Origin: Argopecten irradians
Taxonomy: Eukaryota > Mollusca > Bivalvia > Pectinida > Pectinidae
DNA: 64,000 nucleotides
Reading direction: 5' to 3'
Assembly: GCF_041381155.1 (NCBI RefSeq)
Contig: NC_091135.1
Span: 61,354,567 to 61,418,566 of the forward strand
Shown here: one piece after another, positions 39,585-64,000 of the stretch
How the letters are laid out: every line of letters begins with the position of its first letter
Numbering within the stretch: the stretch's first letter is position 1
Position numbers and translations under genes: made by a program
The notes under the pieces: generated by a model
Databases searched by the model: none
Told to the model about the DNA's origin: nothing
What the model saw: only the letters and a program-made list of their open reading frames with translations

Positions 39585-41236
39585 TAATGGCAAAGAAGCA
39601 AAGCTTTTGATCGTGTCTGGCATGATGGTTTAATATATAAGCTTAAAAAATATGGAATCGAAGGTAACATGTTGACATGGTTTTCATCCTATTATGAATA
39701 GGAGACAGAGAGTGGTCTTTGATGGATTCAAATCTACTTTTAAATCCATACAGGCGGGGGTACCACAGGGATCTGTCCTGGGACCATATCTCTATTGTAT
39801 ATTAATGATATTGGTGATGATATTTCTTCTAATGTAAAATTGTTTGCTGACGATACTTCCTTAATAAGTCTCATTGAAGGAAATAGACAGGAATCTGCCG
39901 AAATTCTTAATAATGATATGAGAAAAATATCTTTGTGGACTGAAAAATGGGGCATACTTTTTAATCCTGATAAAACTGCATCTCTTCTTTTCTCAAGGCG
40001 AGTTGACTCCCAAATATTAATTCCTGAATTATTTTTCAACAATACTAAAATTACTAATGTTACCAAACATAAGCACTTAGGAGTATATTTCAATTCAATG
40101 GCAAATTGGTCTACCCATATAAATTATATATATATGAGAATTTCTGTAAACCTACTCGGATTTGAAATTCAAAATTTTTGATAGAAAATTGTGTTTCAAA
40201 CTATTTTATACTTCCTTTATTCGACCCATTCTCGAGTATTCTAAATATATGGTCCTAAACAACCAATCAGTGGATTTTTAGTCAATAAAGCTTCAACAAG
40301 CAGTACGCATTATAACTGGTTTAAGAAGGGGAACAAGTCACGCTATTATTTATAAAGAATTGGCCTAGTACCACTTATTGACATCTACATCGAAACTTTT
40401 CTAATGGCAAAGAAGCAAAGCTTTTGATCGTGTCTGGCATGATGGTTTAATATATAAGCTTAAAAAATATGGAATCGAAGGTAACATGTTGACATGGTTT
40501 TCATCCTATTATGAATAGGAGACAGAGAGTGGTCTTTGATGGATTCAAATCTACTTTTAAATCCATACAGGCGGGGGTACCACAGGGATCTGTCCTGGGA
40601 CCATATCTCTATTGTATATTAATGATATTGGTGATGATATTTCTTCTAATGTAAAATTGTTTGCTGACGATACTTCCTTAATAAGTCTCATTGAAGGAAA
40701 TAGACAGGAATCTGCCGAAATTCTTAATAATGATATGAGAAAAATATCTTTGTGGACTGAAAAATGGGGCATACTTTTTAATCCTGATAAAACTGCATCT
40801 CTTCTTTTCTCAAGGCGAGTTGACTCCCAAATATTAATTCCTGAATTATTTTTCAACAATACTAAAATTACTAATGTTACCAAACATAAGCACTTAGGAG
40901 TATATTTCAATTCAATGGCAAATTGGTCTACCCATATAAATTATATATATGAGAAAGCATACAAAAGAATAAACATACTCGGATTACTGAAATTCAAACT
41001 TGATAGAAAATCACTTCAAACTATTTATACTTCCTTTATTCGACCCATTCTCGAGTATTCTAATATAGTATGGTCTAATTGCAACCAATCTCAGTGTGAT
41101 ATTTTGGAGTCAATTCAGCTTGAAGCAGTACGCATTATAACTGGTTTAAGAAGGGGAACAAGTCACGCTATTATTTATAAAGAATCTGGCCTAGTACCAC
41201 TTATTAAACGAAGACATCTACATCGAAACTTTTTTC
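39585..41236 (+). repeat. 817-bp tandem duplication inside the LINE
   Basis: 39585-40401 and 40402-about 41236 are two copies offset by exactly 817. The first ~545 bp are identical (117-residue stretches encode the same protein). The last ~260 bp of the first copy instead differ by many scattered small insertions and deletions, while the second copy stays readable as reverse transcriptase. Damage upstream of this point, including the deletion before AFDRVW, is shared by both copies. May be real or an assembly duplicate. Confidence 0.85.
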
Positions 41237-41769: not shown

Positions 41770-43110
41770 AACAAGGACATAGTCATTCAGATCCCCCGCC
41801 AATAGAGATATCAAAGCTGAAGTAAGTTGGATTGTGGAGACTTATGTGTATGAAAAAACCCAGGAAAAAGGAAGTTGTGCTAAAGAAAGATGGAGTATAA
41901 TTCAAGTAGAGCGGGGCTGCAATTGTTGAATCAGGTATACAGCCTTGACATTTATATTAGACTATATACACAAAGATGGGTGAAGTTTTGCAAAGTAACA
42001 TTTACCATTTACCATGATATTTTCAGCAATGTTTCCGTGGTAACGAAAAAAGTGCAAAAAATGAAAACCTAAAAATAGCAAAAGGTACTACTAGACCATA
42101 AAAAGAATATGTCTATGAAGTTTCGTGGAAATATCTCTGCTGGTTTTAGAGTTATGCTCCGGAAATGAACCTGCTACAAAAATATGATATTTTCAGCAAT
42201 GTTTCTATGGTTACAGAAAAAAGCACAAAAAGTGAAAACCTAAAAATAGCAAAAGGCACTACTAGACCATAAGAACAATGTGTCTATGAAATTTCATGGA
42301 AATATCTCTGCTGGTTTTAGAGTTGTGCTCCGGAAACGATTCTTACACAAAAATCTGCCATTTTCAGCAATGTTTCCATGGTTACAGAAAAAAGTACAAA
42401 AAGTGAAAACCTTAAAATAGCAAAAGGCACTACTAGACCATAAGACTAATGTGCCTATGGAGTTCCGTGCATATATCTCAACCGATTTTCCAGTTATGCT
42501 GCGGAAACGAACCTGGTACAAAAATATTATATTTTCAGCAATGTTTCCATGGTTACGGAAAAAGTGCAAAAAAGGAAAACCTAAAAATAGCAAAAGGCAC
42601 TACTAGACCATAAGAACAATGTGTCTATGATGTTTCATGGAAATATCTCTACTGGTTTTAGAGGTGTGCTCCGGAAACGATTCTTACACAAAACTCTGCC
42701 ATTTTCAGCAATGTTTCAATGGTTACAGTAAAAAGTACAAATACAAAAAAGTGAAAACCTTAAAATAGCAAAAGGCACTACTAGACCATAAGACCAATGT
42801 GTCTATGAAGTTTCGTGGAAATATCTCTTCTGGTTTTAGAGTTATACTCCGGAAACGAACCTGGTACAAAAATATGATATTTTCAGCAATGTTTCCATGG
42901 TTACGGAAAAAAATGCAAAAAATGAAAACCTAAAAATAGCAAAAGGCACTACTTGACCATAAGACCAATGTGTGTATGAAGTTTCGTAGAAATATCTCTA
43001 CTGGTTTTAGAGATATGCTCCGGAAACCATTCGTACGGACGGACGGACGGACGGACGGACGGACGGAACCCATTTGTATATCCCCCGCCAACTTCGTTGG
43101 GCGGGGGATA
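41770..43110 (+). repeat. Tandem-core element family A, inserted in the LINE
   Basis: Left end ACAAGGACATAGTCATTCAG then ATCCCCCGCCAA; about six ~171-bp units (AAAAATAGCAAAAGGCACTA, ATTTTCAGCAATGTTTCC); a (CGGA)7 tract at about 43035-43066; and an end hairpin TATCCCCCGCCAA-CTTCG-TTGGGCGGGGGATA at about 43070-43101. It is the inverse-oriented partner of 28741-32085, sharing even the same left-end words. Open frames on both strands are by-products. Confidence 0.85.
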
Positions 43111-44551: not shown

Positions 44552-47500
44552 TCAAACAGCTTTTATTTCTTCATGTAAATATCTTCTACTTATTCCACTG
44601 ATGACACTATAATATTGATTTGACAGTCGTTTCCATGGCAAATTCACATTTCTACGAGGGTTTTGTTTTTGTGTGCGTAATTCAAACGCTCTCATTTCTG
44701 TCGACTCTGTCTTGTTGGATGTCCCGCCAATGATGTACAGCATTCCCCCGGAGTAGACACACGAGAAATCCATGAACGAAGATGCATGTGCTTTCCCTAG
44801 TAACACTGGATCCCTGCCGTATTCATATTCCATCACGTGACCTCGGGGACTTACTATATATAGAATATGTTCGTGCAACGCTATGTCGGTAAAGCTGCAT
44901 TGCATTGGGAGATTAGTTATTACACAACATGTTTGATTTTCCGTGTCAAAGCACTGAACAGCATCCGTGTACTCTCCAAAAGAGAGTGACCCACCGCACA
45001 CCAATATGTTGTAGCCTATCACCGCTGCAGATGCATCAGAGACTGGAAGCGCCAATGCCCCACAGTGGCGCCACAACTTCAGCCCAAAGTCGTACTGTTC
45101 TATACCAGATATGACGATGTGCACCTGGTTTCTTCCTCCTATAACATAAACGGAATCGCTTGTTGCAACAGCGACGTGTTCCGACCTTGCTTCTCTGAAT
45201 TTGGGCAAAGATGTCCATTTATTTTTGTTGATGTCATATTTAAAGAACACACATGGGTTACCTGAGCCTCCAGTCAGATATATAAACTGTCCAAAAGAAC
45301 ATGCGGCGAAGGCACTCCCTGGTTCATAGTTTGAAATCGAAGCTAGCTTAAACCATTGCTTAGTTTTGAAACTGAAACAGGCCACGTGTACACCAGTATC
45401 CTGACCACTAGCCCTGACCACCAGTAACACCTGTTCATTGCGCTGTCTTTCAGATGTACATGTAGTTTCCATGTCGGAATTGTCTATGACTGTCTGCATG
45501 AAGTTGCACGAATCCCTGGGAAATTTATTGTTTACCATTGCGGCAGTGATGCTCGACTTGTTTACGTCTTGAAGACTTACACTTCGAAGGAGAATTGTGA
45601 GATCTTCGTCTTGTCGATGGCACGATGAAAACCATTTCAGTACAGATTCGAAAACTTCCGTTTCGTCTGCAACGTCTAAATCGTCGTCTTTTATAAATTC
45701 AAGTAGCTGATCCCTCGACAATGAAGAGAATTCTTTGCTCCTGGTAACTTCATGGAAGTTGAGGACGATATACGACAATGCTTTATTTCGTAAAGATTCA
45801 AGGCTGTTCAGCTCTGCTAGTCTCAACACTCCAATTATATTGTCAGGATCTGCGTTGTTTATTAAGAATCTCTCGCACTGCACCTGTAATCTGCTGATCT
45901 GGAAATAGGAACACGTTGAAATAAGACTTTCAACATTCGTCACACTAATGTCTTCCTCTCCCAGATATACAGCGTTCAATATTCTCCTGAAATCAGTCTT
46001 TTTCACTCCGTATATATCGATCTCATCAGCGTCTGTTTCGCGCATCCCCGACAGAAACATTGTATCAAAAAATGGAGAAACTGCTGCGAGAATAGCTTTA
46101 TGGCACCGAAATGGTTGACCTTCGACCTTTAGTATAACGTCACTTAATGTGCCGTCTTTGTAACATTGCTGTAGTTTCGAAGAAAACTCTGTCATCCACG
46201 ACTTTCTGAGTTGGTTATTCGTTGTCAATTTACCTTTAACAATTTTCGGTTTATAGTTCAGGATGAAATTGATTTTTAGATCAGATGCAATTGGCTTCAT
46301 TTCATGCTTCAATATATCAGATGTGATTTCTGGTAAGGAGTACAACCAAGCAAGAACTACATCTAAAGGCCACGGAAGTTCGGGTAGTTTGATGACAGAC
46401 TTTCTCTTGTGTGTCGTGCTTATTTGTGGCATGAATGCATCCATCAATATCCTGTGGGCTCGAGAAGAACTTTTACCGTCGCCAATAGTGACGTCAGTGT
46501 GACGTTCTTCTTTCCATAGCCGACAGAGGCCGTCTAGTATATAGCCTGCGTGTGTTGAATCTCTGGGAGATTTCTCCTGTAAGCATAGAAAACAGATTAT
46601 AAACAGTACATAATTGTAGTAGAGTATGTTGTAGGTAAAACACGTGTTCCTATGATAATATAGATCCTATATACTATAGGAACAAACTAAGAGAGGAAGC
46701 TCGGTTAAAGCAGGACAAAGAAGAAGGCGTATTTTTGTACAAAGTGCGAGGACCGCCGTGGAATAGACGGGTCATCCGTTTTGAGAAACGAAACATATGA
46801 TAACATATAGCCATATTTGAACTTAATATGAACTCTACCTGTATATACAAATCAAGTATTAATTTCGATAATTCAATCTAAACTACTATAGATATGGATA
46901 TAGAGGCAATGTATGCCTGCATCCATCAAATTACTATATGATATAATGCTATTTTGTATTGAGAATTCCACCTTTGCGATACACATGTACATGCCTACAT
47001 TGTTCGTATAGGTCTGATACATGTATATATGTTTCTATTTTTCATCAAACTACACAAGGAGTCTACTCCACAACATAGAGTGCTGACCGTTTTATCACGC
47101 AGACAGCTGGCACTGAGCCATCGGAAACTATAAGGTTATCTAGAGCAAAGGGAGCTGCCTTCACACGAATCTACTGACCTAGTCAACAGACACTCAGAGC
47201 AGCCAATGTTGGTTTGACTGTGGTCATTAAAATAATCGATGTATCAATTTTATATTATATTACGGGGTTTAATTCACAACGAAAAGTGAATCTGAGTCAG
47301 GACGTGCCGGGTATAAAATCACACTTCGATATTATATTTTTGTTTTCGAGGTAAGGAAAGGAGAGATTAAACATTTTCAACATAATTTTATAATTAAGTT
47401 AAGGCCTACACGTACATCAATCATAGGCCCATTTAGCATATTGTATATACATGTATATATAATATAAATGTGACTTTTATAAATGCGACTTCAGTGAAGT

Positions 47501-49312: not shown

Positions 49313-52300
49313 ATGACAATGCTGAATTTTGGATTAAAAGGTTAGATAATAGATTAGGCGTTCTTAGCGTTTTAAATTGACATGTCTGTTTTATAATTTA
49401 CACAATTTCATTTGTAAGGGGCCTTTAAATTTCAAGTAAACAAATATTTGTTCATAATAATTTATCATAATGATATTTAACAAAATCACATGTACCCAGT
49501 GTTAAAAATTCCAGAATTGCGTTAGTGCACTATAATTATGCTGTCTTTTTGAAGAAAACAGAATATGTGTACAGTGGAATAACTGTATGATCAACTCTAC
49601 TATATGGTCTTCTATTAAAATGTAATATATATATATGATCTTACATGAGTTTTCATTTCATATTAAATTTTATGAAACAAGTCTAAGGAGTTTTAATTTT
49701 TGTGACCCTTGGCAAGCAAAAATTAAAACTTCGAGATGAGTTTCATAAAACCTCATATATGAAATGAACACAAATTTAAAGATGCTCCACCGCTGACAAA
49801 TGATATCTTTTTGCCATCAAAAACAGGATAAGACAATTTAGTATTTTTCTTCAGTTACAAAAGTTACTTACTTTACACCATTACCAGCATTCTCCAATAC
49901 AAAAATATTAAAGATAATTAATTGCATACCGAAAAAAATCTGTGGCATTATGTTCTATATGGAATGAAGTATTGATTGCGCACATACTAAAAGCAAAATG
50001 AATTATTTTGTATTATATTTTGTGTTAATTAGACATACAAATACACGATTAAACACCAATTATTGTTAAATTGATAAAGATCATTTATACTCTGTCAGCT
50101 GTGTTCCGGGTATTCCACTTTCATGAAGGCTTGTCATATATCAAATTATTGAACTTGTTATAATAATTTTCATATTACATAGCATTTAGCCACGTATGTA
50201 AGATCCTCTATGTATGATTGATTAGAACCTGTTTTATTTTAGTTTTGAGTGTGACGTACCTTATGAATCTGATGGGTCCATGTGTCAGGTCCCAGTCTAC
50301 AGGTAAGTTTTACAAACATGTAGTTTAGTGGTGGATTTGATGATTGAATGTTAGTCATATTAGTGTCTTTAGTGTTTTCAGAACAGGAAAATAAATATTT
50401 GATAATTAGGAGTTAAACGCTTAAGCTTTAGATTTACTTTTAATGTGATCGTAAGTTACAGGCTGCTTTGGCATGGAAGTGCAGGGTAAAAATACCGGCT
50501 ATGGCCATGATTCAGAGATCTTGATACAACATATTCAAAACATCCATGTAATTTTGGTTTATAACCTCCATGAAATTTTACTATTTTAATCATCATGTTT
50601 TTGGTGAATGGGTTTAATATTTTCATATATTATTCGTCTCGTAGAATGTTCAGTCATAGAGGGAAGCTAAACAAGATTCAATTATTGATAGCATGTTTAA
50701 AAAGTACATATTCTGTCTTTCGATATTAAAGAGTTATCTGCCCTTGCGGGTTGGTATTGGTTGTTACATCATAAGTTTGTGAACGTCATATTTTTTAGAG
50801 AAAACACTGAGTTTCGCTCACAAAAGATGATGCTACGATTGCTACCTTTCCACAAGGGAAGTAACTCTGTAATATGTAAAGACTGATTATACATTGTATA
50901 ATGTGATTTTGATTGACAGACATTTGTAAGAGTGAGGAGTACAACAAGGATCATGGCACTATTACCAGCCCCAACTACCCATCACCATACCCAACCAACT
51001 TCTGTAAGGACTGGTTCATCACTGGTAACACCAACGATGTCATCACCATCAGGTTTGTTTCAATATCAAACAATTAATAAAGAAACATAAATACATAGTG
51101 ATTGGAAACTCCTTTGTCATACAGGGCTGTATCTGCCAATTACAGAAGCCATTGTCTGTCTCATGCCTATACTTCTAAGCCTATCCCTCTGTTACAACCT
51201 TCTGGTGTCATCCAAGCCCTTTCTCATTTATCCATTTCACATAATTACTGTAAAACCTGTTTATAAAGACTAGTCAAGGAAGAAAAATGTCTAGTCAAGT
51301 GGTGGTGCTGGGTGGGGTGTGTTATACACAGGTTATGTTGTAATTGGCCAGTAGGAACCTCACGGTCCCATTAAACAGGTGGTCATTTTACTGAGAGTGA
51401 TTGAAGGCTGGTTGTGCTGAAATGGATAGGAAGCCATTATAACTCATAATGTCATAATCATTATAGAATGTTGAATGACAGCTTAGTTTGTGATAAAGCA
51501 TGTGACATAACCTCCGGGGAAAACTTTAGGTCCAGACAATGTCACATTCTGGCCCAGCATGTGACATAACCCCAGGGGAAAACTTTAGGCCTAGACATTC
51601 TGGTCCAGCATGTGACATAACCCCAGGGGAAAACTTTAGGCCCACACATTCTGGTCCAGCATGTGACATAACCACAGGGGAAAACTTTAGGCCCAGACAT
51701 TCTGATCCAGCATGTGACATAACCCCAGGGGAAAACTTTAGGCCCAGACAATGTCACATTCTGGTCCAGCATGTGACATAACCACAGGGGAAAACTTTAG
51801 GCCCAGACATTCTGGTCCAGCATGTGACATAACCTCCGAGGAATACTTAAGGCCCAGACATTCTGGTCCAGCATGTGACATAACCCCAGGGGAAAACTTA
51901 AGGCCCAGACATTCTGGTCCAGCATGTGACATAACCCCAGGGGAAAACTTAAGGCCCAGACGTTCTGGTCCAGCATGTGACATAACCTCCGGGGAAAACT
52001 TTAGGACCACACATTCTGGTCCAGCATGTGACATAACACCAGGGGAAAACTTAAGGCCCAGACATTCTGGTTCAGCATATGACATAACCTCCGGGGAAAA
52101 CTTTAGGCCCAGACAATGTCACATTCTGGTCCAGCATGTGACATAACCCCAGGGGAAAACTTTAGGCCTAGACATTCTGGTCCAGCAGGTGACATAACCC
52201 CAGGGGAAAACTTTAGGCCCAGACATTCTGGTCCAGCATGTGACATAACCCCAGGGGAAAACTTTAGGCCCAGACATTCTGGTCCAGCATGTGACATAAC

Positions 52301-55300
52301 CTCCGAGGAAAACTTAAGGCCCAGACATTCTGGTCCAGCATGTGACATAACCCCAGGGGAAAACTTTAAGCCCAGACATTCTGGTCCAGCATGTGACATA
52401 ACCTCTGAGGAAAACTTAAGGCCCAGACATTCTGGTCCAGCATATGACATAACCCCAGGGGAAAACCTTAGGGCCCTGACATTCTGGTCCAGCATGTGAC
52501 ATAACCCCAGAGGAAAACTTTGGGCCCAGACATTCTGGTCCAGCATGTGACATAACCTCAGGGGGAAACTTTAGGCCCAGACATTGTGGTCCAGCATGTG
52601 ACATAACCCAAATAATTACATTTGGTAATTAAGATTAACAATAATATAGAAACTAACATTACTTTTGAAACGAGAATTTATTGATGTTATATTATGATAT
52701 AACCTTGTATAAAGAGTTCTATATATAATGAATGTTTGTACTAGGTACCGATAGTTTTATGAAATACATCTCAATATGTCTATACTGTATTATCTCTACA
52801 ATTACTCTTGATATGTTTCAGTTTTAAGATGTTTGATGTTGAGACTGGTATCCTGAAGTCTTGTGACCGTGACTTCCTTGAGATTGGGCCAGACCCAAAG
52901 ATCAAAATATGTGGTGACATCAACAACATCCAGAGGGTTTACATCTCAAATACCAAACATGTCAGAATTCATTTTAACTCTGACTACATGACAACGGGCA
53001 AGGGCTTCGAGCTGATGTATATCATGGGTAGGTCATGGGTATTTAAAGAGACAATCCCGTCTAAGAGTACATTAAAAATTGCACATATTTTGGAAACAAA
53101 CCAGTTCTAATAGAAATTAGATAAGTTGGTTTTATTGTGATATGCCAGAAAAGCCCACTGTAGTGAAATGTATGTGAAATGTTCAAATTTGCTTACTGTC
53201 CGCCATTACACATAGTGGTCGGATGCCTTGTATGCTGAACCCTGGCCCTTGCCTTCTGTAGTAAAGAAATTTTTGTCTAGAGCTACATGTATTCAAATTG
53301 CTCTTACAGTAGGTATTTATAGTGTATTTACCTAATTAGATGCATGTTCTTGTCTAATAAAAATAGTTTCATCAACTCCTCAGTGGTTATGTATTGCATT
53401 TATTTAATGTGCATGACTTTGGCTCAGGTATGGGTACACCGTACATGTTGTACCTACTTAATCGTATTTATCAACAATTTGGAATTTCAACAGTATCAAT
53501 GAAAATTATTTCATAAGGAATGTAGAGCAATGCATTTGTGAATTCACTGAATTGTCCCTTTAAATATTATGGATCAGTATATATATGTTGTCTGTTAGAA
53601 CTCGGGAAATAATCAAGGTATGCTCCCAAACTTTTAACTCTTGTTGACATTTGTTTCTTATTGTATTTATCATTATCATTTGTTTTTTGTTGCAGAAAAA
53701 ATTAACAAAAGCTCAAAAACCAAAAAACCCTTATTTCATATTATCTTTTGTGTTAACTAGACATATATATACACGATTAAACACCAATTATTGTTCAAAT
53801 GACAAATACCATTTATAATGTGACGGCGGTGGAGAATCTTTAAAGAAATTATGAAAAGTCTAATTTGTGTGTCAATTTAAATAATGTATTCTATCACAAA
53901 TATTGTCCTAAGACTACCTCATAATTAGATATTTTATCTTCTAAGAAGAGAAAATATATTCAGAGACACATATGTGGCAAAAATTGGAAGATTATGTATG
54001 TACTGATGTATAAAGATTAATTGATATCAACTCCACATATATTGTCTGTTTGTTGATTTCAGGTCCATTGTCTATGAGGAAATGCCCACAGGAGCGGTTC
54101 CGCTGTGACAATGGGAAGTGTATCTATAAGGAGTGGAAGTGTAATGGCGTAGCAGAGTGTGAGGATGATAGTGATGAAGCAGACTGTCCTCATAGTATGT
54201 ATTGATATGGAACCTTTAATTATGTATCTAGCATAGAAATCAAAACTTAGAGATAAATTCTATGAACTCTTATTGGTGTATTGAACATGTAACCTAAGAT
54301 CTGGTCACATCTCATAACTTTCAAAATTAAACCTGGTATATTGTTTTTGTCATTTGTAGAAGTCCCCTCGACAACAGCTACGACGACTGTGATTTGTACC
54401 AATAGCAGTTTGCTGTGTGAGGACCTGACAACGGGTAGTAATCGGTGTATACCAAGATCTCAGTGGTGTGACGGGGAGCGTGACTGTCTGTACGGAGAGG
54501 ATGAGGATAAGAAACTGTGTCGTAAGTTGCAACATCTGGATCAGTGAAACACTTGTCGCATTGTCATATTAAGTTACAACATCTGGGTCAGTGAAACACT
54601 TCGCACTGTCGTAGGTTGCGAATTCTGGATCAGTGAAACACTTGTCACACTGTCATAAGTTACAACATCTGGGTCAGTGAAACACTTTTCACACTGTCGT
54701 AAATTGCAACATCTGGATCAGTGAAACACTTGTCACACTGTCATAAGTTACACCATCTGGGTCAGTGAAACACTTGTCACCCTGTCGTAAGTTACAACAT
54801 TTGGATCAGTGTTACACTTGTCAACCTATCATAAGTGACAACATCTGGATCAGTGATACACTTGTTACACTGTCATAAGTTACAACATCTGGATCAGTGA
54901 TACACTTGTCACCCTGTCGTAAGTAACAACATCTGGATCAGTGAAACACTTGTCACACTGTCGTAAATTGCAACATTTGGAACAGTGAAGCACTATTCAC
55001 ACTGTCGTAAGTTACAACATCTGGATCAGTGAAACACTTGTCACCCTGTCGTAAGTTACAACATCTGGATCAGTGAAACAATTGTCACACTGTCATAAGT
55101 TACAACATCTGGATCAGTGATACACTTGTCACCCTGTCGTAAGTTACAACATGTGGATCAGTGAAACACTATTCACACTGTTGTAAATTACAACATTTGG
55201 AACAGTGAAGCACTATTCACACTGTCGTAAGTTGCAACATCTGGATCAGTGATACACTTGTCACACTGTCATAAGTTACATCATCTGGATCAGTGAAACA

Positions 55301-58300
55301 ATTGTCACACTGTCATAAGTTACAACATCTGGATCAGTGAAACACTTGTCACACTGTCGTAAGTTACAACATCTGGATCAGTGATACACTTGTCACACTG
55401 TCATAAGTTACAACATGTGGGTCAGTGAAACACTTGTCACACTGTCATAAGTTACAACATCTGGGTCAGTGAAACACTTGTCACCCTGTCGTAAGTTACA
55501 ACATTTGGATCAGTGAAACACTTGTCACACTGTCGGAAGTTACAACATTTGGGTCAGTGAAACACTTGTCACGCTGTCGTAAGTTACAACATATGGATCA
55601 GTGAAACACTTGTCACACTGTTGTAAGTTACAACATTTGGGTCAGTGAAACACTTGTCACCTTGTCGTAAGTTGCAACATTTGGATCAGTGATACACTTG
55701 TCACACTGTTATAAGTTACAACATCTGGATCAGTGATACACTTGTCACACTGTCGTAAGTTACAACATTTGGGTCAGTGAAACACTTGTCACACTGTCAT
55801 AAGTTACAACATCTGGGTCAGTGAAACACTTGTCACACTATTGTAAGTTACAACAGCTGGATCAGTGAAACACTTGTCACACTGTGATAAGTTACAACAT
55901 CTGGATCAGTGATACACTTGTCACACTGTCGTAAGTTACAACATCTAGGTCAGTGAAACACTTGTCACACTGTCGTAAGTTATAACATCTGGATCAGTGA
56001 AACACTAGTTGTGCATATTACATTTTGGGATAATTTTGATAGTCAAGTTTGTTACCGCTATTTCTCAGAAAATTCTCAAATTTCATATGTAGGTTCCCCT
56101 AGGGCCCTAGTTTGGGGTCCGCAGTGGTTAAGATGTTCCGACATATTACAACAAATTCAAATGCTATGTGGGACAGTTGCCTGGTACTGACCGCTAGTCT
56201 GTGGTTTTTCTGCAGGTACTCCGGCTTTGCTTCACCAACAAACCTAGCACGTCCTTAAATGACTTTGGCTGTTTACAGGACCTTAACTAATGAAAACCAA
56301 AACCCCTAGTTATGCATATTGCATTCTGGGACCGATCGGTCTGCAAGATGACAGGCTGCCATCATGAATTTTGATAGTTGAAGTTTGTTATCAGTATTTA
56401 TCAGAAAGCACTCAAGGGATCCTTTTTAAAATTTTATATGTAGGTTCCCTTTGGGCCCCAGTTGTGCATATTGCATTTAGGAACTTCTTGGTTAACAAGA
56501 AGGCCGATAGGCCCCATACTTGCCAACTTCCCCGAATCTGTTGGGAAATTCCCTATTTCAGACTCCCTATTCGTTACCTGATCGTATTGTTCAAAAAGAC
56601 AGTAATCTCCTGATTTTGAAAGACCACTTATCAATTAGAAATGACTGCTCCAATACAGACTTGCTGATTACCTTACGGGGGACAATGAGTTGCTTATATA
56701 TGTTATAAAAGTGAACAGTATTTGTGAATTTATGTTTCATGGCCTGTGTAACATTTAAGACTACAAGTCCTAATCAAGATGAGCTGTAACAGTAAACGCA
56801 TTTGTTTAGTGTAAACTTTAAGCGGCGTATCATACAAACTCTTGCATCACAATATTCTAAGCATCTGATCGACTTTGGAAACTTCCGGAACAATACAATG
56901 CAATTCAGGTTTATATTGTCAATAAAAGAAAGTGACGAAACGGATAACTTTTAGTACCAGCCACATATTTAATTTATTTCACATCATCCTAGGTCCTAGG
57001 TGTACGTTGCATTAGCGCTTACTAAACCCTGTGACCATAGACTGCATTTGCTGCAGTTCTAATTAATATTTATAGAATTAAACAGCTTTGCGTGAGAGAA
57101 ACAGAATAAAAAAAACACATTATAAAATATCAGTCTGAGTGTCTGAGCTCTAGATTTAATGTACCCCAGAAAGGTGTTCAAACATGACACAGGTAAGTCA
57201 CCACGGGCCCAGAGACTGGACGGTGTTCTAGCGGACGACTATTTTGAACAACGAAACAAGTTTATCATATCAATATCAATATGATAATAAACACACTTTT
57301 ATGTAACAAAGAACTTCAAAGTAATTTTACATTTAAAGTTCTGATGAAGTGAAGGAAAGTATTTACTACCATGCACCTAGGGCGTAAACCATCTCCTTGC
57401 AATAAAGTCCCAAGGATAATTAGGGAAAGTGCTACGTACACCTGTTGCAGAGGATGATTTCATATAGCGGAAATTAAGGTTAGGAAGTATTTAGCGAGCA
57501 CTTAATGTCTAACAAACATATTTCTAGTTTATTTTGTCAGAGTTTTTGCCTGCTTAATTAATTTTATAACTTAAATATATATTAGACAGACTATTATTTT
57601 TAAATAAAAAGAGAGTACAGATCAACATAAATATTTACACATACACAGCATTAGATAAAAAAAGAAACAAAATCCTTTTCTTTAATAATTGGATTAATTA
57701 TCTCCCCTTGATTTAATGCACAATTTGTACCATGTGCGACATGTGTTTCAGTTGGAAAATGTCGTTCCACACTTTCTCCTCCATGTGAATTTTGTGAAAG
57801 TTGGCAAGTTTGAGGCCTCAACTTCAGAGAAAGATCCCTCTTTCAAATGTCAGACATGGATTAATCTTTGGTGGGCGCCAAGATCCCTCTTGGAGCACTG
57901 GTATCAGTATATATATAATACAGTATATTAAGATGAAATATTTGTTTTTGTTTTCAGCGACCTTTAAGTGTAACAGTCACATTGACCGCCAGACAGGGTT
58001 CGTAGTATCACCAAACTTTCCCAAAGATTACCTCAACAATCTCAACTGTACTTGGACAATCCATGTCCAGGATATGTCTGCTCAGGTTCAACTTAGGTTT
58101 GTAAAATTTGAACTTCAAAATGAGGCTGGGACCGATTTCCTAACAGTGTATGATGGGACGTACCATGAAGGCAAGGTCATCGGTGTGTATTACGGGGGAC
58201 TAGAGAATGTTCCTACTCTGTTGGAATCCACATCTGATTACATCACTCTCAAGTTCCAAACAAATGGTGTCCGAGCTGAAAGTGGATTTAACATCACATT

Positions 58301-58571
58301 CCAAAAGAAAGGTAAGGAAGTGACCAGTTGATGATAACATCTGTCTCTGTGGACCAAATAAATAACTTTTTAGACGCAAAAATTTAGTTGATTATATAAT
58401 ACATATTGTAAGTGTGTTATACTATAGTCCTTATTGATGTGGTTTTGACAGGAGTATGTCTCCCAGACCAGTCATCGTGTGGACCGATAGAGAAAGACTG
58501 TTACCCTAAAGATAAAGCATGTGATGGCATGTGGAACTGTCGCATTCATGGAGGAGATGAGAAGGGCTGTG
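49313..58571 (+). CDS. LRP12: LRP3/LRP12-type receptor, N-terminal 398 residues (gene continues past the window)
   Basis: Exons 49313-49340, 50243-50302, 50920-51052, 52822-53027, 54063-54194, 54360-54521, 57958-58311, 58452-58571; phases agree throughout. Residues 1-29 form a signal peptide ([20 protein letters not shown]; this first exon is the least certain). Then CUB1 (about 32-143, [20 protein letters not shown]), LDLa1 (150-184, [14 protein letters not shown]), LDLa2 (199-240, WCDGERDC), CUB2 (about 245-358, [18 protein letters not shown]) and LDLa3 (361-398, six cysteines). CUB-LDLa-LDLa-CUB-LDLa and its spacing match LRP12/LRP3, which then have two more LDLa and a membrane segment. 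These are endocytic, ligand-binding surface receptors. The introns after LDLa2 and LDLa3 begin with splice-donor minisatellites. An invertebrate form may be ancestral to LRP3/10/12. Confidence 0.88.
49650..49770. repeat. Foldback element, ~50-bp arms
   Basis: TCATTTCATAT...TTTTATGAAAC...GGAGTTTTAATTTTTG on the left pairs with CAAAAATTAAAACTTC...GTTTCATAAAA...ATATGAAATGA on the right around CCCTTGGCA. In intron 1 of the LRP12-like gene. Confidence 0.7.
49777..50105. mobile_element. TIR element, left part
   Basis: Starts TTTAAAGATGCTCCACCGCT. Its interior (ACACGATTAAACACCAATTA at about 50043) recurs at about 53769, where the matching right end GGCGGTGGAGAATCTTTAAA is preserved (53823-53845). 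Here the right end is lost near 50105. Non-coding. Confidence 0.6.
51496..52608. repeat. 51-bp minisatellite, ~22 copies
   Basis: Units run CCAGCATGTGACATAACC, then CCAGGGGAAAACTTTAGG, then CCCAGACATTCTGGT. An 8-base insertion (AATGTCAC) makes three 59-bp units at about 51538, 51750 and 52115; the spacings 212 and 365 equal 59 + 3x51 and 59 + 6x51 exactly. Because 51 is a multiple of three, long open frames appear on both strands ([17 protein letters not shown]) but they are by-products. It lies wholly inside the intron between the two CUB1 exons. Confidence 0.92.
53047..53559. mobile_element. MITE, second copy, TTAA-flanked
   Basis: AGAGACAATCC to AATTGTCCCT, flanked by TTAA at 53043-53046 and 53560-53563. 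Same family and direction as 3539-4109. It begins only ~19 bases after the donor of LRP12 exon 4. Confidence 0.8.
53690..53846. mobile_element. TIR element, right part
   Basis: Right end GACGGCGGTGGAGAATCTTTAAAG, inverse of the left end at 49777, with the shared interior ACACGATTAAACACCAATTA. The left end is lost. Confidence 0.55.
54515..56006 (+). repeat. 44-bp minisatellite starting on the donor of the LDLa2 exon, ~34 copies
   Basis: Unit: CACACTGTC, GTAAGTTACAACATCTGG, ATCAGTGAAACACTTGT. The first unit spans the exon 6 boundary: the exon ends CTGTGTC at 54521 and the intron opens GTAAGTTGCAACATCTGG, so the donor is part of the repeat. By eye about half of the later units keep TC-GTAAGT; others read ATAAGT or GTAAAT and could not act as donors. 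The array ends at about 56006, where a family-B fragment begins. Confidence 0.93.
56007..56520 (-). repeat. Family-B fragment interrupted by a SINE
   Basis: CTAGTTGTGCATATTACATT, GTTACCGCTATTTCTCAGAA and TAGGTTCCCCTAGGGCCCTA before the SINE, and ATGCATATTGCATTCTGGGA and TGTAGGTTCCCTTTGGGCCC after it, belong to the ~155-bp unit of family B. Confidence 0.75.
56113..56303 (+). mobile_element. tRNA-derived SINE with 8-bp TSD
   Basis: Begins TGGGGTCCGCAGTGGTTAAG (A-box-like TGGTTAAGATGTTCCGAC) and ends with AATGAAAACCAAAAC. It is flanked by CCCTAGTT at 56105-56112 and 56304-56311. The part CACCAACAAACCTAGCACGT matches the SINE at 39085. The B-box region is eroded. Confidence 0.75.
56521..57957. 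other. Right part of LRP12 intron 6
   Basis: Contains one arm of the 38412-type TIR element (56985-57073, TAGGTCCTAGGTGTACGTTG) and a piece of the family-B left end (57830-57900, GTGGGCGCCAAGATCCCTCT). The rest is AT-rich with no recognised gene. Confidence 0.5.
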
Positions 58572-61500
58572 GTAGGTAACATGGGGGAGATGAGAAGGGC
58601 TGTGGTAGGTAACATGGGGGAGATGAGAAGGGCTTTGGTAGGTAACATGTGGGAGATGAGAAGGGCTGTGGTAGGTAACATGGGGGAGATGAGAAGGGCT
58701 GTGGTAGGTAACATGGGAGAGATGAGAAGGGCTGTGGTAGGTAACATGGGGGAGATGAGAAGGGCTGTGGTAGGTAACATGGGGGAGATGAGAAGGGCTG
58801 TGGTAGGTAACATGGGGGAGATGAGAAGGGCTGTGGTAGGTAACATGGGGGAGATGAGAAGGGCTGTGGTAGGTAACATGGGGGAGATGAGAAGGGCTGT
58901 GGTAGGTAACATGGGGGAGATGAGAAGGGCTGTGGTAGGTAACATGGGGGAGATGAGAAGGGCTGTGGTAGGTAACATGGGGGAGATGAGAAGGGCTGTG
59001 GTAGGTAACATGGGGGAGATGAGAAGGGCTGTGGTAGGTAAGATAACATGGGGAGATGAGAAGGGCTGTGGTAGGTAACATGGGGGAGATGAGAAGGGCT
59101 GTGGTAGGTAACATGGGGAGATGAGAAGGGCTGTGGTAGGTAACATGGGGGAGATGAGAAGGGCTGTGGTAGGTAACATGGGGGAGATGAGAAGGGCTGT
59201 GGTAGGTAACATGGGGGAGATGAGAAGGGCTGTGGTAGGTAACATGGGGGAGATGAGAAGGGCTGTGGTAGGTAACATGGGGGAGATGAGAAGGGCTGTG
59301 GTAGGTAACATGGGGGAGAGATGAGAAGGGCTGTGGTAGGTAACATGGGGGAGATGAGAATGGCTGTGGTAGGTAACATGGGGGAGATGAGAAGGGCTGT
59401 GGTAGGTAACATGGGGGAGATGAGAAGGGCTGTGGTAGGTAACATGGGGGAGATGAGAAGGGCTGTGGTAGGTAACATGGGGGAGATGAGAAGGGCTGTG
59501 GTAGGTAACATGGGGGAGATGAGAAGGGCTGTGGTAGGTAACATGGGGGAGATGAGAAGGGCTGTGGTAGGTAACATGGGGGAGATGAGAAGGGCTGTGG
59601 TAGGTAACATGGGGGAGATGAGAAGGGCTGTGGTAGGTAACATGGGGAGATGAGAAGGGCTGTGGTAGGTAACATGGGAGATGAGAAGGGCTGTGGTAGG
59701 TAACATGGGGGAGATGAGAAGGGCTGTGGTAGGTAACATGGGGGAGATGAGAAGGGCTGTGGTAGGTAACATGGGGGAGATGAGAAGGGCTGTGGTAGGT
59801 AACATGGGGGAGATGAGAAGGGCTGTGGTAGGTAACATGGGGGAGATGAGAAGGGCTGTGGTAGGTAACATGGGGGAGATGAGAAGGGCTGTGGTAGGTA
59901 ACATGGGGGAGATGAGAAGGGCTGTGGTAGGTAACATGGGGGAGATGAGAAGGGCTGTGGTAGGTAACATGGGGGAGATGAGAAGGGCTGTGGTTGGTAA
60001 CATGGGGGAGATGAGAAGGGCTGTGGTAGGTAACATGGGGGAGATGAGAAGGGCTGTGGTAGGTAACATGGGGGAGATGAGAAGGGCTGTGGTAGGTAAC
60101 ATGGGGGAGATGAGAAGGGCTGTGGTAGGTAACATGGGGGAGATGAGAAGGGCTGTGGTAGGTAACATGGGGGATGATAAGAAGGGCTGTGGTAGGTAAC
60201 ATGGGGGAGATGAGAAGGGCTGTGGTAGGTAACATGGGGGAGATGAGAAGGGCTGTGGTAGGTAACATGGGGGAGATGAGAAGGGCTGTGGTAGGTAACA
60301 TGGGGGAGATGAGAAGGGCTGTGGTAGGTAACATGGGGGAGATAAGAAGGGCTGTGGTAGGTAACATGGGGGAGATGAGAGGGGCTGTGGTAGGTAACAT
60401 GGGGGAGATGAGAAGGGCTGTGGTAGGTAACATGGGGAGATGATGAGAAGGGCTGTGGTAGGTAACATGGGGGAGATGAGAAGGGCTGTGGTAGGTAACA
60501 TGGGGGAGATGAGAAGGGCTGTGGTAGGTAACATGGGGGAGATGAGAAGGGCTGTGGTAGGTAACATGGGGGAGATGAGAAGGGCTGTGGTAGGTAACAT
60601 GGGGGAGATGAGAAGGGCTGTGGTAGGTAACATGGGGGAGATGAGAAGGGCTGTGGTAGGTAACATGGGGGAGATGAGAAGGGCTGTGGTAGGTAACATG
60701 GGGGAGATGAGAAGGGCTGTGGTAGGTAACATGGGGGAGATGAGAAGGGCTGTGGTAGGTAACATGAAGGAGATGAGAAGGGCTGTGGTAGGTAACATGG
60801 GGGAGATGAGAAGGGCTGTGGTAGGTAACATGGGGGAGATGAGAAGGGCTGTGGTAGGTAACATGGGGGAGATGAGAAGGGCTGTGGTAGGTAACATGGG
60901 GAGATGAGAGGCTGTGTAGAACATGGGAGATGAAGGGCTGTGGTAGGTAACATGGGGGAGATGAGAAGGGCTGTGGTAGGTAACATGGGGGAGATGAGAA
61001 GGGCTGTGGTAGGTAACATGGGGGAGATGAGAAGGGCTGTGGTAGGTAACATGGGGGAGATGAGAAGGGCTGTGGTAGGTAACATGGGGGAGATGAGAAG
61101 GGCTGTGGTAGGTAACATGGGGGAGATGAGAAGGGCTGTGGTAGGTAACATGGGGGAGATGAGAAGGGCTGTGGTAGGTAACATGGGGGAGATGAGAAGG
61201 GCTGTGGTAGGTAACATGGGGGAGATGAGAAGGGCTGTGGTAGGTAACATGGGGAGAGATGAGAAGGGCTGTGGTAGGTAACATGGGGGGAGATGAGAAG
61301 GGCTGTGGTAGGTAACATGGGGGAGATGAGAAGGGCTGTGGTAGGTAACATGGGGGAGATGAGAAGGGCTGTGGTAGGTAACATGGGGGAGATGAGAAGG
61401 GCTGTGGTAGGTAACATGGGGGAGATGAGAAGGGCTGTGGTAGGTAACATGGGGGAGATGAGAAGGGCTGTGGTAGGTAACATGGGGGGAGATGAGAAGG

Positions 61501-64000
61501 GCTGTGGTAGGTAACATGGGGAGATGAGAAGGGCTGTGGTAGGTAACATGGGGGAGATGAGAAGGGCTGTGGTAGGTAACATGGGGGAGATGAGAAGGGC
61601 TGTGGTAGGTAACATGGGGGAGATGAGAAGGGCTGTGGTAGGTAACATGGGGGAGGATAGGTAACATGGGGGATGAAGAGGGCTGTGGTAGGTAACATGG
61701 GGGAGATGAGAAGGGCTGTGGTAGGTAACATGGGGGAGATGAGAAGGGCTGTGGTAGGTAACATGGGGGAGATGAGAAGGGCTGTGGTAGGTAACATGGG
61801 GGAGATGAGAAGGGCTGTGGTAGGTAACATGGGGGAGATGAGAAGGGCTGTGGTAGGTAACATGGGGGAGATGAGAAGGGCTGTGGTAGGTAACATGGGG
61901 GAGATGAGAAGGGCTGTGGTAGGTAACATGGGGGATGAAAGGTGTGGTGGAGATGAGAAGGGCTGTGGTAGGTAACATGGGGGAGATGAGAAGGGCTGTG
62001 GTAGGTAACATGGGGGAGATGAGAAGGGCTGTGGTAGGTAACATGGGGGAGATGAGAAGGGCTGTGGTAGGTAACATGGGGGAGATGAGAAGGGCTGTGG
62101 TAGGTAACATGGGGGAGATGAGAAGGGCTGTGGTAGATAACAGGGGGGGGGGGAGATGAGAAGGGCTGTGGTAGGTAACATGGGGGAGATGAGAAGGGCT
62201 GTGGTAGGTAACATGGGGGAGATGAGAAGGGCTGTGGTAGGTAACATGGGGGAGATGAGAAGGGCTGTGGTAGGTAACATGGGGGAGATGAGAAGGGCTG
62301 TGGTAGGTAACATGGGGGAGATGAGAAGGGCTGTGGTAGGTAACATGGGGGAGATGAGAAGGGCTGTGGTATGTAATTATATGGGGGAGATGAGAAGGGC
62401 TGTGGTAGGTAACATGGGGGAGATGAGAAGGGCTGTGGTAGGTAACATGGGGGAGATGAGAAGGGCTGTGGTAGGTAACATGGGGGAGATGAGAAGGGCT
62501 GTGGTAGGTAACATGGGGGAGATGAGAAGGGCTGTGGTAGGTAACATGGGGGAGATGAGAAGGGCTGTGGTAGGTAACATGGGGGAGATGAGAAGGGCTG
62601 TGGTAGGTAACATGGGGGAGATGAGAAGGGCTGTGGTAGGTAACATGGGGGAGATGAGAAGGGCTGTGGTAGGTAACATGGGGGAGATGAGAAGGGCTGT
62701 GGTAGGTAACATGGGGGAGATGAGAAGGGCTGTGGTAGGTAACATGGGGGAGATGAGAAGGGCTGTGGTAGGTAACATGGGGGAGATGAGAAGGGCTGTG
62801 GTAGGTAACATGGGGAGATGAGAAGGGCTGTGGTAGGTAACATGGGGGAGATGAGAAGGGCTGTGGTAGGTAACATGGGGATGGGGAGATGAGAAGGGCT
62901 GTGGTAGGTAACATGGGGAGATGAGAAGGGCTGTGGTAGGTAACATGGGGGAGATGAGAAGGGCTGTGGTAGGTAACATGGGGAGATGAGAAGGGCTGTG
63001 GTAGGTAACATGGGGGAGATGAGAAGGGCTGTGGTAGGTAACATGGGGGAGATGAGAAGGGCTGTGGTAGGTAACATGGGGGAGATGAGAAGGGCTGTGG
63101 TAGGTAACATGGGGGAGATGAGAAGGGCTGTGGTAGGTAACATGGGGGAGATGAGAAGGGCTGTGGTAGGTAACATGGGGGAGATGAGAAGGGCTGTGGT
63201 AGGTAACATGGGGGAGATGAGAAGGGCTGTGGTAGGTAACATGGGGGAGATGAGAAGGGCTGTGGTAGGTAACATGGGGGAGATGAGAAGGGCTGTGGTA
63301 GGTAACATGGGGGAGATGAGAAGGGCTGTGGTAGGTAACATGGGGGAGATGAGAAGGGGTGTGGTAGGTAACATGGGGGAGATGAGAAGGGCTGTGGTAG
63401 GTAACATGGGGAGATGAGAAGGGCTGTGGTAGGTAACATGGGGGAGATGAGAAGGGCTGTGGTAGGTAACATGGGGGAGATGATAAGGGCTGTGGTAGGT
63501 AACATGGGGGAGATGAGAAGGGCTGTGGTAGGTAACATGGGGGAGATGATAAGGGCTGTGGTGGTAACATGGGGAGATGAGAAGGGCTGTGGTAGGTAAC
63601 ATGGGGGAGATGAGAAGGGCTGTGTGTAGGTAACATGGGGGAGATGATAAGGGCTGTGGTAGGTAACATGGGGGAGATGAGAAGGGCTGTGGTAGGTAAC
63701 ATGGGGGAGATGAGAAGGGCTGTGGTTGGTAACATGGGGGAGATGAGAAGGGCTGTTGTAGGTAAAATGGGGGGAGATGAGAAGGGCTGTGGTAGGTAAC
63801 ATGGGGGAGATGAGAAGGGCTGTGTAGTTGGTAACATGGGGGAGATGAGAAGGGCTGTGGTGGTAACATGGGGAGATGTAAGGCTGTGGTAGGTAACATG
63901 GGAGATGAGAAGGGCTGTGGTAGGTAACTTGGAGATGAGAAGGGATGTGGTAGGTAACATGGGGAGATGAAAGGGCTGTGGTAGGTAACATGGGGGAGAT
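58547..64000 (+). repeat. 33-bp exon/donor minisatellite, ~165 copies, runs off the window
   Basis: The first unit, 58547-58579, is the last 25 bases of the LDLa3 exon (CATGGAGGAGATGAG...GGCTGTG) plus the first 8 intron bases (GTAGGTAA). Every later unit is almost the same with CATGGGGG in place of CATGGAGG, so each holds an exon-like stretch and a GTAGGT donor. 5454 bp / 33 is about 165 units, with occasional gain or loss of a G in the G5 run and a few shorter units. The units become more irregular from about 63.5 kb. The open frames ([11 protein letters not shown] on +; [11 protein letters not shown] and its two sister frames on -) come from a stop-free unit whose length is a multiple of three. 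Confidence 0.97.

What the first reader, a model, noticed from the sequence alone, without database searches (positions are those of the whole stretch)
58452..64000. A splice donor expanded into a >5.4-kb minisatellite
The last 25 bases of the LDLa3 exon plus the first 8 intron bases have been copied head-to-tail about 165 times, starting exactly at the real exon end. The true 5' splice site (58571/58572) is therefore followed by more than 150 near-identical exon-end + GTAGGT copies with no spacer. A tandem array built on a donor, of this size, inside a conserved receptor gene is unusual, and the splicing machinery must choose among identical sites.
Basis: partly seen in the sequence, partly recalled or inferred. 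Interest (0 to 1): 0.92.

Follow-up and report, generated by a model that had tools for sequence, protein, structure and literature searches.

The report
Splice-donor minisatellites in a receptor gene
In an animal receptor gene the last bit of an exon together with the start of the next intron has been copied head-to-tail more than 160 times, a very large case of a known kind of repeat that is thought to leave splicing intact because only the first copy can give a working message.

Summary
A 33-bp unit (last 25 bases of an LDLa exon, 58452-58571, plus 8 intron bases) is repeated 166 times plus a fragment from 58547 to the window end. 116 of 166 units equal the consensus; 156 keep GTAGGT. A second array, not in the finding, lies in the same gene: a 44-bp unit, 34 copies, 54518-56009, with the donor of the preceding LDLa exon inside its first copy. 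Six exons joined at the first donors give one open frame of 368 codons, CUB-LDLa-LDLa-CUB-LDLa. Donors in later units, or intron retention, add an in-frame stop (after 2 codons at LDLa3, 8 at LDLa2), so only the first unit can be productive. Boundary-spanning minisatellites are known as 'mirages' in amphioxus, where splicing is reported normal, and a donor minisatellite is known in human IFI6. So this is a very large new member of a known kind, probably outside cephalochordates. Unusual are its size and the independent double occurrence in one gene. Donor use and true copy number cannot be tested here.

The parts
58452..58571 (+). LDLa3 exon, 120 nt, phase 1-1; its last 25 bases are the exonic part of unit 1
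   Evidence: AG/GT bounds and frame; Pfam Ldl_recept_a E 0.0021, profile 3-37 of 37, 18.7 bits, below the 24.1-bit cut-off
58572..58577 (+). First 5' splice site, TGTG|GTAGGT, inferred to be the one in use
   Evidence: frame and phase; donor score 7.03 with recalled human frequencies
58547..64000 (+). 33-bp minisatellite, 166 complete units plus a fragment, running off the window
54360..54521 (+). LDLa2 exon, 162 nt, phase 1-1
   Evidence: Pfam LDLa E 2e-05; AG/GT and frame
54518..56009 (+). Second donor minisatellite, 44-bp unit, 34 copies; the donor TGTC|GTAAGT at 54521/54522 lies in the first copy
   Evidence: TRF 54518-56006, 33.8 copies; segmentation; boundary query score 48 against shuffle maxima 27 and 25
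53022..53041 (+). Short duplication over the donor of exon CUB1b (TCATGG|GTA again 11 bases on), a possible nascent case, weak
   Evidence: 9-base run at period 11; reached by 0.9% of 529 background GT sites and 1.6% of all background positions, uncorrected for six donors
50920..51052 (+). CUB1 exon, first half
   Evidence: Pfam CUB 7e-05
52822..53027 (+). CUB1 exon, second half
   Evidence: Pfam CUB 1.5e-04
54063..54194 (+). LDLa1 exon
   Evidence: Pfam LDLa 1.2e-11
57958..58311 (+). CUB2 exon
   Evidence: Pfam CUB 1.1e-22; frame; AG at 57956-57957

Best explanation
It is a donor-spanning ('mirage'-type) minisatellite. Shown: a segment spanning the exon end and its 5' splice site is tandemly repeated, the exonic copy keeps its frame, and a second array with an unrelated unit begins at another donor of this gene. 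Inferred: a short tandem duplication put a second copy of the donor into the intron, harmlessly, because the upstream copy stayed intact; slippage and unequal exchange then grew the intronic copies to 5.4 kb or more and kept the middle uniform. Inferred: the spliceosome uses the first donor, because it is transcribed first and closes the shortest exon, and messages from later units stop at once and would be removed or give a cut-short protein. The array is then mostly tolerated intronic ballast, held in place on its exon side by selection on the exon.
For: Unit anatomy and counts. Six exons joined at first donors give 368 codons with 0 stops, AG/GT at the boundaries (CUB2 acceptor). The stop follows 2 codons after the LDLa3 exon and 8 after the LDLa2 exon if the first donor is passed over. 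Of 12 splice boundaries queried, only the LDLa2 and LDLa3 donors have copies more than 20 bases away in 50800-64000 (scores 48 and 80; shuffle maxima 27 and 31, with two misplaced boundaries redone). The distal edge is less uniform than the middle: variants in 14 of 16 units against 32 of 144 (p 4e-7). On the exon side substitutions occur in 3 of 5 units against 13 of 144 (p 0.009). The two arrays differ in unit and uniformity: mean pairwise difference 0.8% among 132 of 166 33-bp units, 10.7% among 31 of 34 44-bp units; unit-to-unit score 15, shuffle maximum 17. Amphioxus mirages are a direct precedent.
Against: No RNA evidence was available, so use of the first donor is inference. The first donor is no stronger in sequence than its copies. 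The far end of the array and the next exon lie outside the window, so that this intron is spliced is not shown. LDLa3 scores under Pfam's cut-off alone (18.7 against 24.1 bits) and is not among the two LDLa stretches counted in the joined protein at E 0.001. On the exon side the excess of variants of any kind is not significant (3 of 5 against 32 of 144, p 0.085) and indels are absent there (0 of 5); the blocks of units were chosen after looking. For the LDLa2 array the exonic overlap is certain for only 4 bases, and an exact-run test sees only a 5-base run at that donor, which is ordinary (36% of background).
Confidence: 0.8

Rival explanations
1. Assembly artefact: a short real duplication was inflated by an assembler looping through a repeat.
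For: 34 of 50 variant units carry indels, often a single G loss ('-G4' in 19 units), which looks like uncorrected long-read error; copy number is therefore not to be trusted exactly.
Against: 40 distinct unit sequences and no repeated run of units holding two or more variant units, which looping would be expected to produce; variants rise towards the far end.
Confidence: 0.1
2. A regulated switch: donors in later units or intron retention are used on purpose to make a shortened, secreted form of the receptor ending in ...KGCGR.
For: All such messages stop at the same place, before any further exon; 153 of 166 units keep the donor context.
Against: A stop soon after a passed-over donor is expected by chance; near-identity of the units means that donor retention need not reflect selection; in the LDLa2 array only 16 of 36 segments keep GTAAGT, so donors are not maintained there.
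Confidence: 0.06
3. The repeat is an independent satellite or mobile element that lies next to the exon, and the likeness to the exon end is coincidence.
For: The window is rich in other tandem repeats.
Against: 24 of 25 exon-end bases match the unit and encode the end of the LDLa match; in the boundary test only the LDLa2 and LDLa3 donors match sequence elsewhere in the gene.
Confidence: 0.02

Closest known systems
Amphioxus 'mirage' minisatellites (Adh3, globin BflGb6 and BflGb9, troponin C, PGBD5)
   Same: Tandem repeats over an exon-intron boundary carrying copies of splice signals; splicing said not to be disturbed for Adh3, globin and troponin C; Adh3 units 10-72 bp; cluster edges left out of homogenisation in BflGb6 (passages of PMC3087553 and PMC3902484).
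   Different: Here 166 or more copies over 5.4 kb, against 6 and 3 copies in the two haplotypes of BflGb6, which lie at an acceptor side; two donor arrays in one gene; organism probably not a cephalochordate (inferred).
Human IFI6 (6-16, G1P3) donor minisatellite
   Same: A minisatellite that supplies multiple splice donor sites (title of Turri et al. 1995, seen only as a citation in PMC4526556).
   Different: PMC4526556 says in its introduction that two downstream repeat units serve as donors and give different isoforms; here later units give stops. A unit of about 12 bp and about 26 copies is recalled, from no call.
Intron gain by duplication of AG/GT-bearing segments (Rogers model)
   Same: Starts from the same event, duplication of a segment carrying a splice signal (discussed in PMC3087553, passage).
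   Different: Here an existing intron was enlarged; no new intron is seen.

Membership tests
Mirage-type (exon-intron boundary) minisatellite | Head-to-tail repeat whose first unit spans an exon-intron boundary | tested here: met
   33-bp array: unit 1 = 58547-58579 over the boundary 58571/58572. 44-bp array: boundary 54521/54522; exonic overlap certain for 4 bases TGTC, possibly 9 with 6 of 9 matching; if those 4 were chance the array would start at the first intron base
Mirage-type (exon-intron boundary) minisatellite | Repeat copies carry the splice signal | tested here: met
   GTAGGT in 156 of 166 units; GTAAGT in 16 of 36 segments of the other array, two flanking pieces included
Mirage-type (exon-intron boundary) minisatellite | Repeats do not disturb the normal mRNA | not testable with these tools
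   No RNA data; the first-donor gene model is open over 368 codons
Mirage-type (exon-intron boundary) minisatellite | Length polymorphism, including somatic | not testable with these tools
   One sequence only; no reads
IFI6-type donor minisatellite | Later donors used to make protein isoforms | tested here: inconclusive
   Donors of later units give a stop after 2 codons, so no longer isoform is possible; whether a truncated form is made is unknown
CUB/LDLa receptor of the LRP3/LRP10/LRP12 type | CUB-LDLa-LDLa-CUB-LDLa order | tested here: met
   Domain order by Pfam; that this is the order of LRP3/10/12 is recalled. LDLa3 is below the Pfam cut-off on its own
CUB/LDLa receptor of the LRP3/LRP10/LRP12 type | Further LDLa repeats, membrane segment and cytoplasmic tail | not testable with these tools
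   Beyond the window end

The most novel reading that the evidence does not exclude
Splice donors are preferred seeds of minisatellites in this lineage: something about a 5' splice site makes the DNA there duplicate and expand, so that one gene carries two independent donor arrays of different uniformity and a possible third, nascent one.
Probability: 0.2. Interest if true: 0.8.

Novelty: new member of a known kind. Interest (0 to 1): 0.5.

Why it matters
It extends boundary-spanning minisatellites to what is probably another phylum and to far larger size than the cases I could read about. It offers a natural experiment: more than 150 donors with the same 9 bases in a row after one exon, where only position can tell the spliceosome which to use. 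Two independent cases in one gene raise the testable question whether splice donors seed tandem repeats.

Tried and rejected
Independent satellite: rejected, because the unit matches the exon end and encodes the end of the LDLa match. Assembler looping: not favoured, since no repeated run of units with two or more variant units was found, though indel-rich variants suggest an imperfect consensus. RNA structure hiding the later donors: the fold of 58520-58720 is no better than shuffles (z 0.52, 139 of 200 shuffles at least as good). G-quadruplex or G-richness as the common cause: the 33-bp unit is strongly G-skewed (+0.78) and the array has G4Hunter 1.16, but 0 motifs of four G3 runs with loops of 1-7 (1 with loops up to 13), and the 44-bp array has G4Hunter 0.018, so G-richness cannot explain both. 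A protein encoded by the array: the exon frame is closed; one forward and all three reverse frames of the unit are open, and the 1842-aa reverse ORF is repeat arithmetic. Rfam: 0 matches at gathering score in the window; ARAGORN tRNA: 0. Bacterial promoter/terminator scan of 58400-58700: 0 sites, not meaningful for a eukaryote. Identifying the species through stray DNA: a 30-base unit pattern had 0 exact matches in viral contigs (not tried on genome contigs), and a 28-base piece of the 155-bp repeat had 0 in genome contigs and 0 in viral contigs. No whole genome is held. Paper searches: minisatellite + splice site + bivalve, 0 papers; tandem repeat + donor splice site + each repeat unit + intron, 0; 'mirage minisatellite', 0; tandem repeat + intron + splice donor + oyster, 3, none on this to judge by the listing.

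Rows dropped before counts: the 12-base partial unit at the window end is left out of all 33-bp counts. The 33-bp distance used 132 of 166 units, those of exactly 33 bases. The 44-bp distance used 31 of 34 units (30), the first three, nearest the exon and most divergent, being left out. Background for one search left out the 51-bp and 44-bp arrays. The boundary test leaves out the 20 bases on either side of each site, so it cannot see the CUB1b duplication. Misplaced sites: LDLa1 donor at 54192 and 54193 (54194 is right, used); CUB2 acceptor one base late (57957 is right). Redone, both stay below shuffle level (22 against 29, 21 against 27). One search also tried the CUB2 exon from 57959, which gives 5 stops.

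Full report
What is there. The window ends inside a tandem array of a 33-base unit that starts at 58547. Segmenting it gives 166 complete units and a 12-base fragment; 116 of 166 are identical to the consensus, 156 keep GTAGGT and 153 keep TGTGGTAGGTAA. Unit 1 is the last 25 bases of an exon (58547-58571) and the first 8 of the intron (58572-58579), with one base different from the consensus, synonymous by reading (GGA against GGG, glycine). The exon, 58452-58571, has AG and GT at its bounds and is 120 nt long in phase 1-1. Its translation matches Pfam Ldl_recept_a over positions 3-37 of 37, with E 0.0021 and 18.7 bits, under the 24.1-bit cut-off; it has six cysteines by reading.

A second array in the same gene. 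At 54518-56009 a 44-base unit is repeated 34 times (TRF 33.8 copies to 56006; segmentation). The donor of the LDLa2 exon, TGTC|GTAAGT at 54521/54522, lies in its first copy. The exonic overlap is certain for four bases and possible for nine, with six of nine matching; if the four were chance, the array would begin at the very first intron base. Queries of 40 bases centred on 12 splice boundaries found copies elsewhere in 50800-64000 for only two, the donors of LDLa2 (score 48; shuffle maxima 27 and 25) and LDLa3 (80; 31 and 26). The other ten stayed below their shuffle maxima (two of the ten were misplaced by one base and, redone, also stayed below). That test leaves out the 20 bases on either side of each site. 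A test for exact runs across each donor finds a 49-base run at LDLa3 but only a 5-base run at LDLa2, which is ordinary (36% of background positions), because the second copy there has diverged. It finds a 9-base run at period 11 at the CUB1b donor (0.9% of 529 background GT sites, 1.6% of all background positions, uncorrected for six donors), which is suggestive only; the other three donors are ordinary. The third array of the gene, a 51-base unit at 51497-52609, lies within an intron away from both ends. It was asked after the fact and rests on one gene.

The two arrays look like separate events. Their units are not alike (local score 15, shuffle maximum 17). Mean pairwise difference is 0.8% among 132 of the 166 33-base units and 10.7% among 31 of the 34 44-base units, so the LDLa3 array is the younger or the better homogenised. 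In the LDLa2 array 16 of 36 segments hold GTAAGT; the commonest change at the first intron base is G to A, 12 of 31 units, which fits decay at a CpG (inference).

The gene. Joining six exons at the first donors gives 368 codons without a stop, with AG/GT at the boundaries (CUB2 acceptor). Pfam counts two CUB and two LDLa stretches on the joined protein at E 0.001 and finds LDLa3 weakly on its own, in the order CUB-LDLa-LDLa-CUB-LDLa. PDB sequence matches (the 60 shown of 83) are to LRP2, cubilin, neuropilin-2, VLDLR and similar proteins. That the order resembles LRP3/LRP10/LRP12 is recalled. If the first donor is passed over, the LDLa3 frame meets TAA after two more codons and the LDLa2 frame meets TGA after eight. 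The TAA is at 58577-58579, before any donor of unit 2. The one other GT in the first 8 intron bases, 58576, would add four bases and shift the frame. So only the first donor keeps the phase.

How it probably grew and is tolerated. A tandem duplication that includes the donor leaves the exon and its first donor untouched, so it is harmless as long as the first donor wins. From then on copies can grow by slippage or unequal exchange. In line with this, the distal edge is less uniform than the middle: 14 of the last 16 units differ from consensus against 32 of 144 (p 4e-7). On the exon side, substitutions occur in 3 of 5 units against 13 of 144 (p 0.009), but variants of any kind are not in significant excess there (3 of 5 against 32 of 144, p 0.085) and indels are 0 of 5; the blocks were chosen after looking. 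The rise in the last 16 units suggests that the true end lies not far past the window (inference). The first donor is not stronger in sequence than its copies: it scores 7.03 with recalled human donor frequencies, and 153 sites have the same 9 bases; the second GT of the unit, TAG|GTAACA, scores 5.32. So position must decide: the first donor is made first and closes the shortest exon. This step is inferred. RNA folding of the first units is not unusual (z 0.52).

Is it an artefact? 34 of the 50 variant units carry indels, often loss of one G, and a few units look scrambled, which may reflect imperfect long-read consensus. But there are 40 distinct unit types, and no run of units holding two or more variant units occurs twice, so simple assembler looping is not favoured. 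The exact copy number should not be relied upon.

What is known. Tandem repeats over exon-intron boundaries were named 'mirages' in amphioxus. I read passages of PMC3087553, which describe them in globin genes and cite Adh3 with units of 10-72 bp, length and somatic instability, and splicing that seems undisturbed. I read one passage of PMC3902484 on PGBD5, Adh and troponin C. In human IFI6 a minisatellite provides several donor sites; I saw this as a citation (Turri et al. 1995) and one sentence in the introduction of PMC4526556, since that paper is not held. The Adh3 paper is not held either. Passages of PMC2812944 report tandem repeats at exon-intron boundaries in human duplicated genes. 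Passages of PMC12783039 report repeats inside an earthworm metallothionein intron; they do not say that these reach the donor. Searches, the two aimed at oysters and bivalves, listed no such report; the library lacks most subscription papers.

Which organism. Not established. G+C is 32-42% in the fourteen 4-kb blocks before 56001, and the window has 155- and 171-base tandem repeats, in two places followed by (ACGG)n. This resembles the Helitron-type elements with central repeats that are abundant in oysters (passages of PMC11136912, where the term ACGG has 0 occurrences; the ACGG tail is recalled). I infer a bivalve or other mollusc. If it is an amphioxus after all, the case is less new.

Verdict. 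A real, very large donor-spanning minisatellite of a known kind, with a second one in the same gene. The splicing puzzle is smaller than stated, because only the first donor gives a working message, and precedents exist.

Noticed in passing
54518-56009: Second donor minisatellite (44-bp unit, 34 copies) at the LDLa2 exon of the same gene, more divergent and with many decayed donors.
   Followed up: yes
56005-56080: The 44-bp array ends in sequence like the 155-bp repeats elsewhere in the window (CTAGTTGTGCATATT..., by reading), as if a Helitron-type element had cut into its far end.
   Followed up: no
58472-64000 (minus strand): All three reverse frames of the 33-bp unit are open, giving a spurious 1842-aa ORF that gene finders may annotate.
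   Followed up: partly
51497-52609: 51-bp minisatellite, about 20 copies, inside the CUB1 intron, with a 365-bp higher-order period.
   Followed up: partly
1-738, 28960-30053, 42014-43067: 155- and 171-bp tandem repeats, the first and last followed by (ACGG)n, like bivalve Helitron-type elements.
   Followed up: partly
39744-40123 and 40561-40940: Reverse-transcriptase-like stretch present twice 817 bases apart, with identical translation over 127 aa on the minus-strand reading.
   Followed up: no
44552-46666 (minus strand): BTB-BACK-Kelch gene in one long open frame of 704 codons (Pfam).
   Followed up: partly
12051-15255 (minus strand): LINE-like pair of long open frames (endonuclease/reverse-transcriptase-like by reading only).
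   Followed up: no
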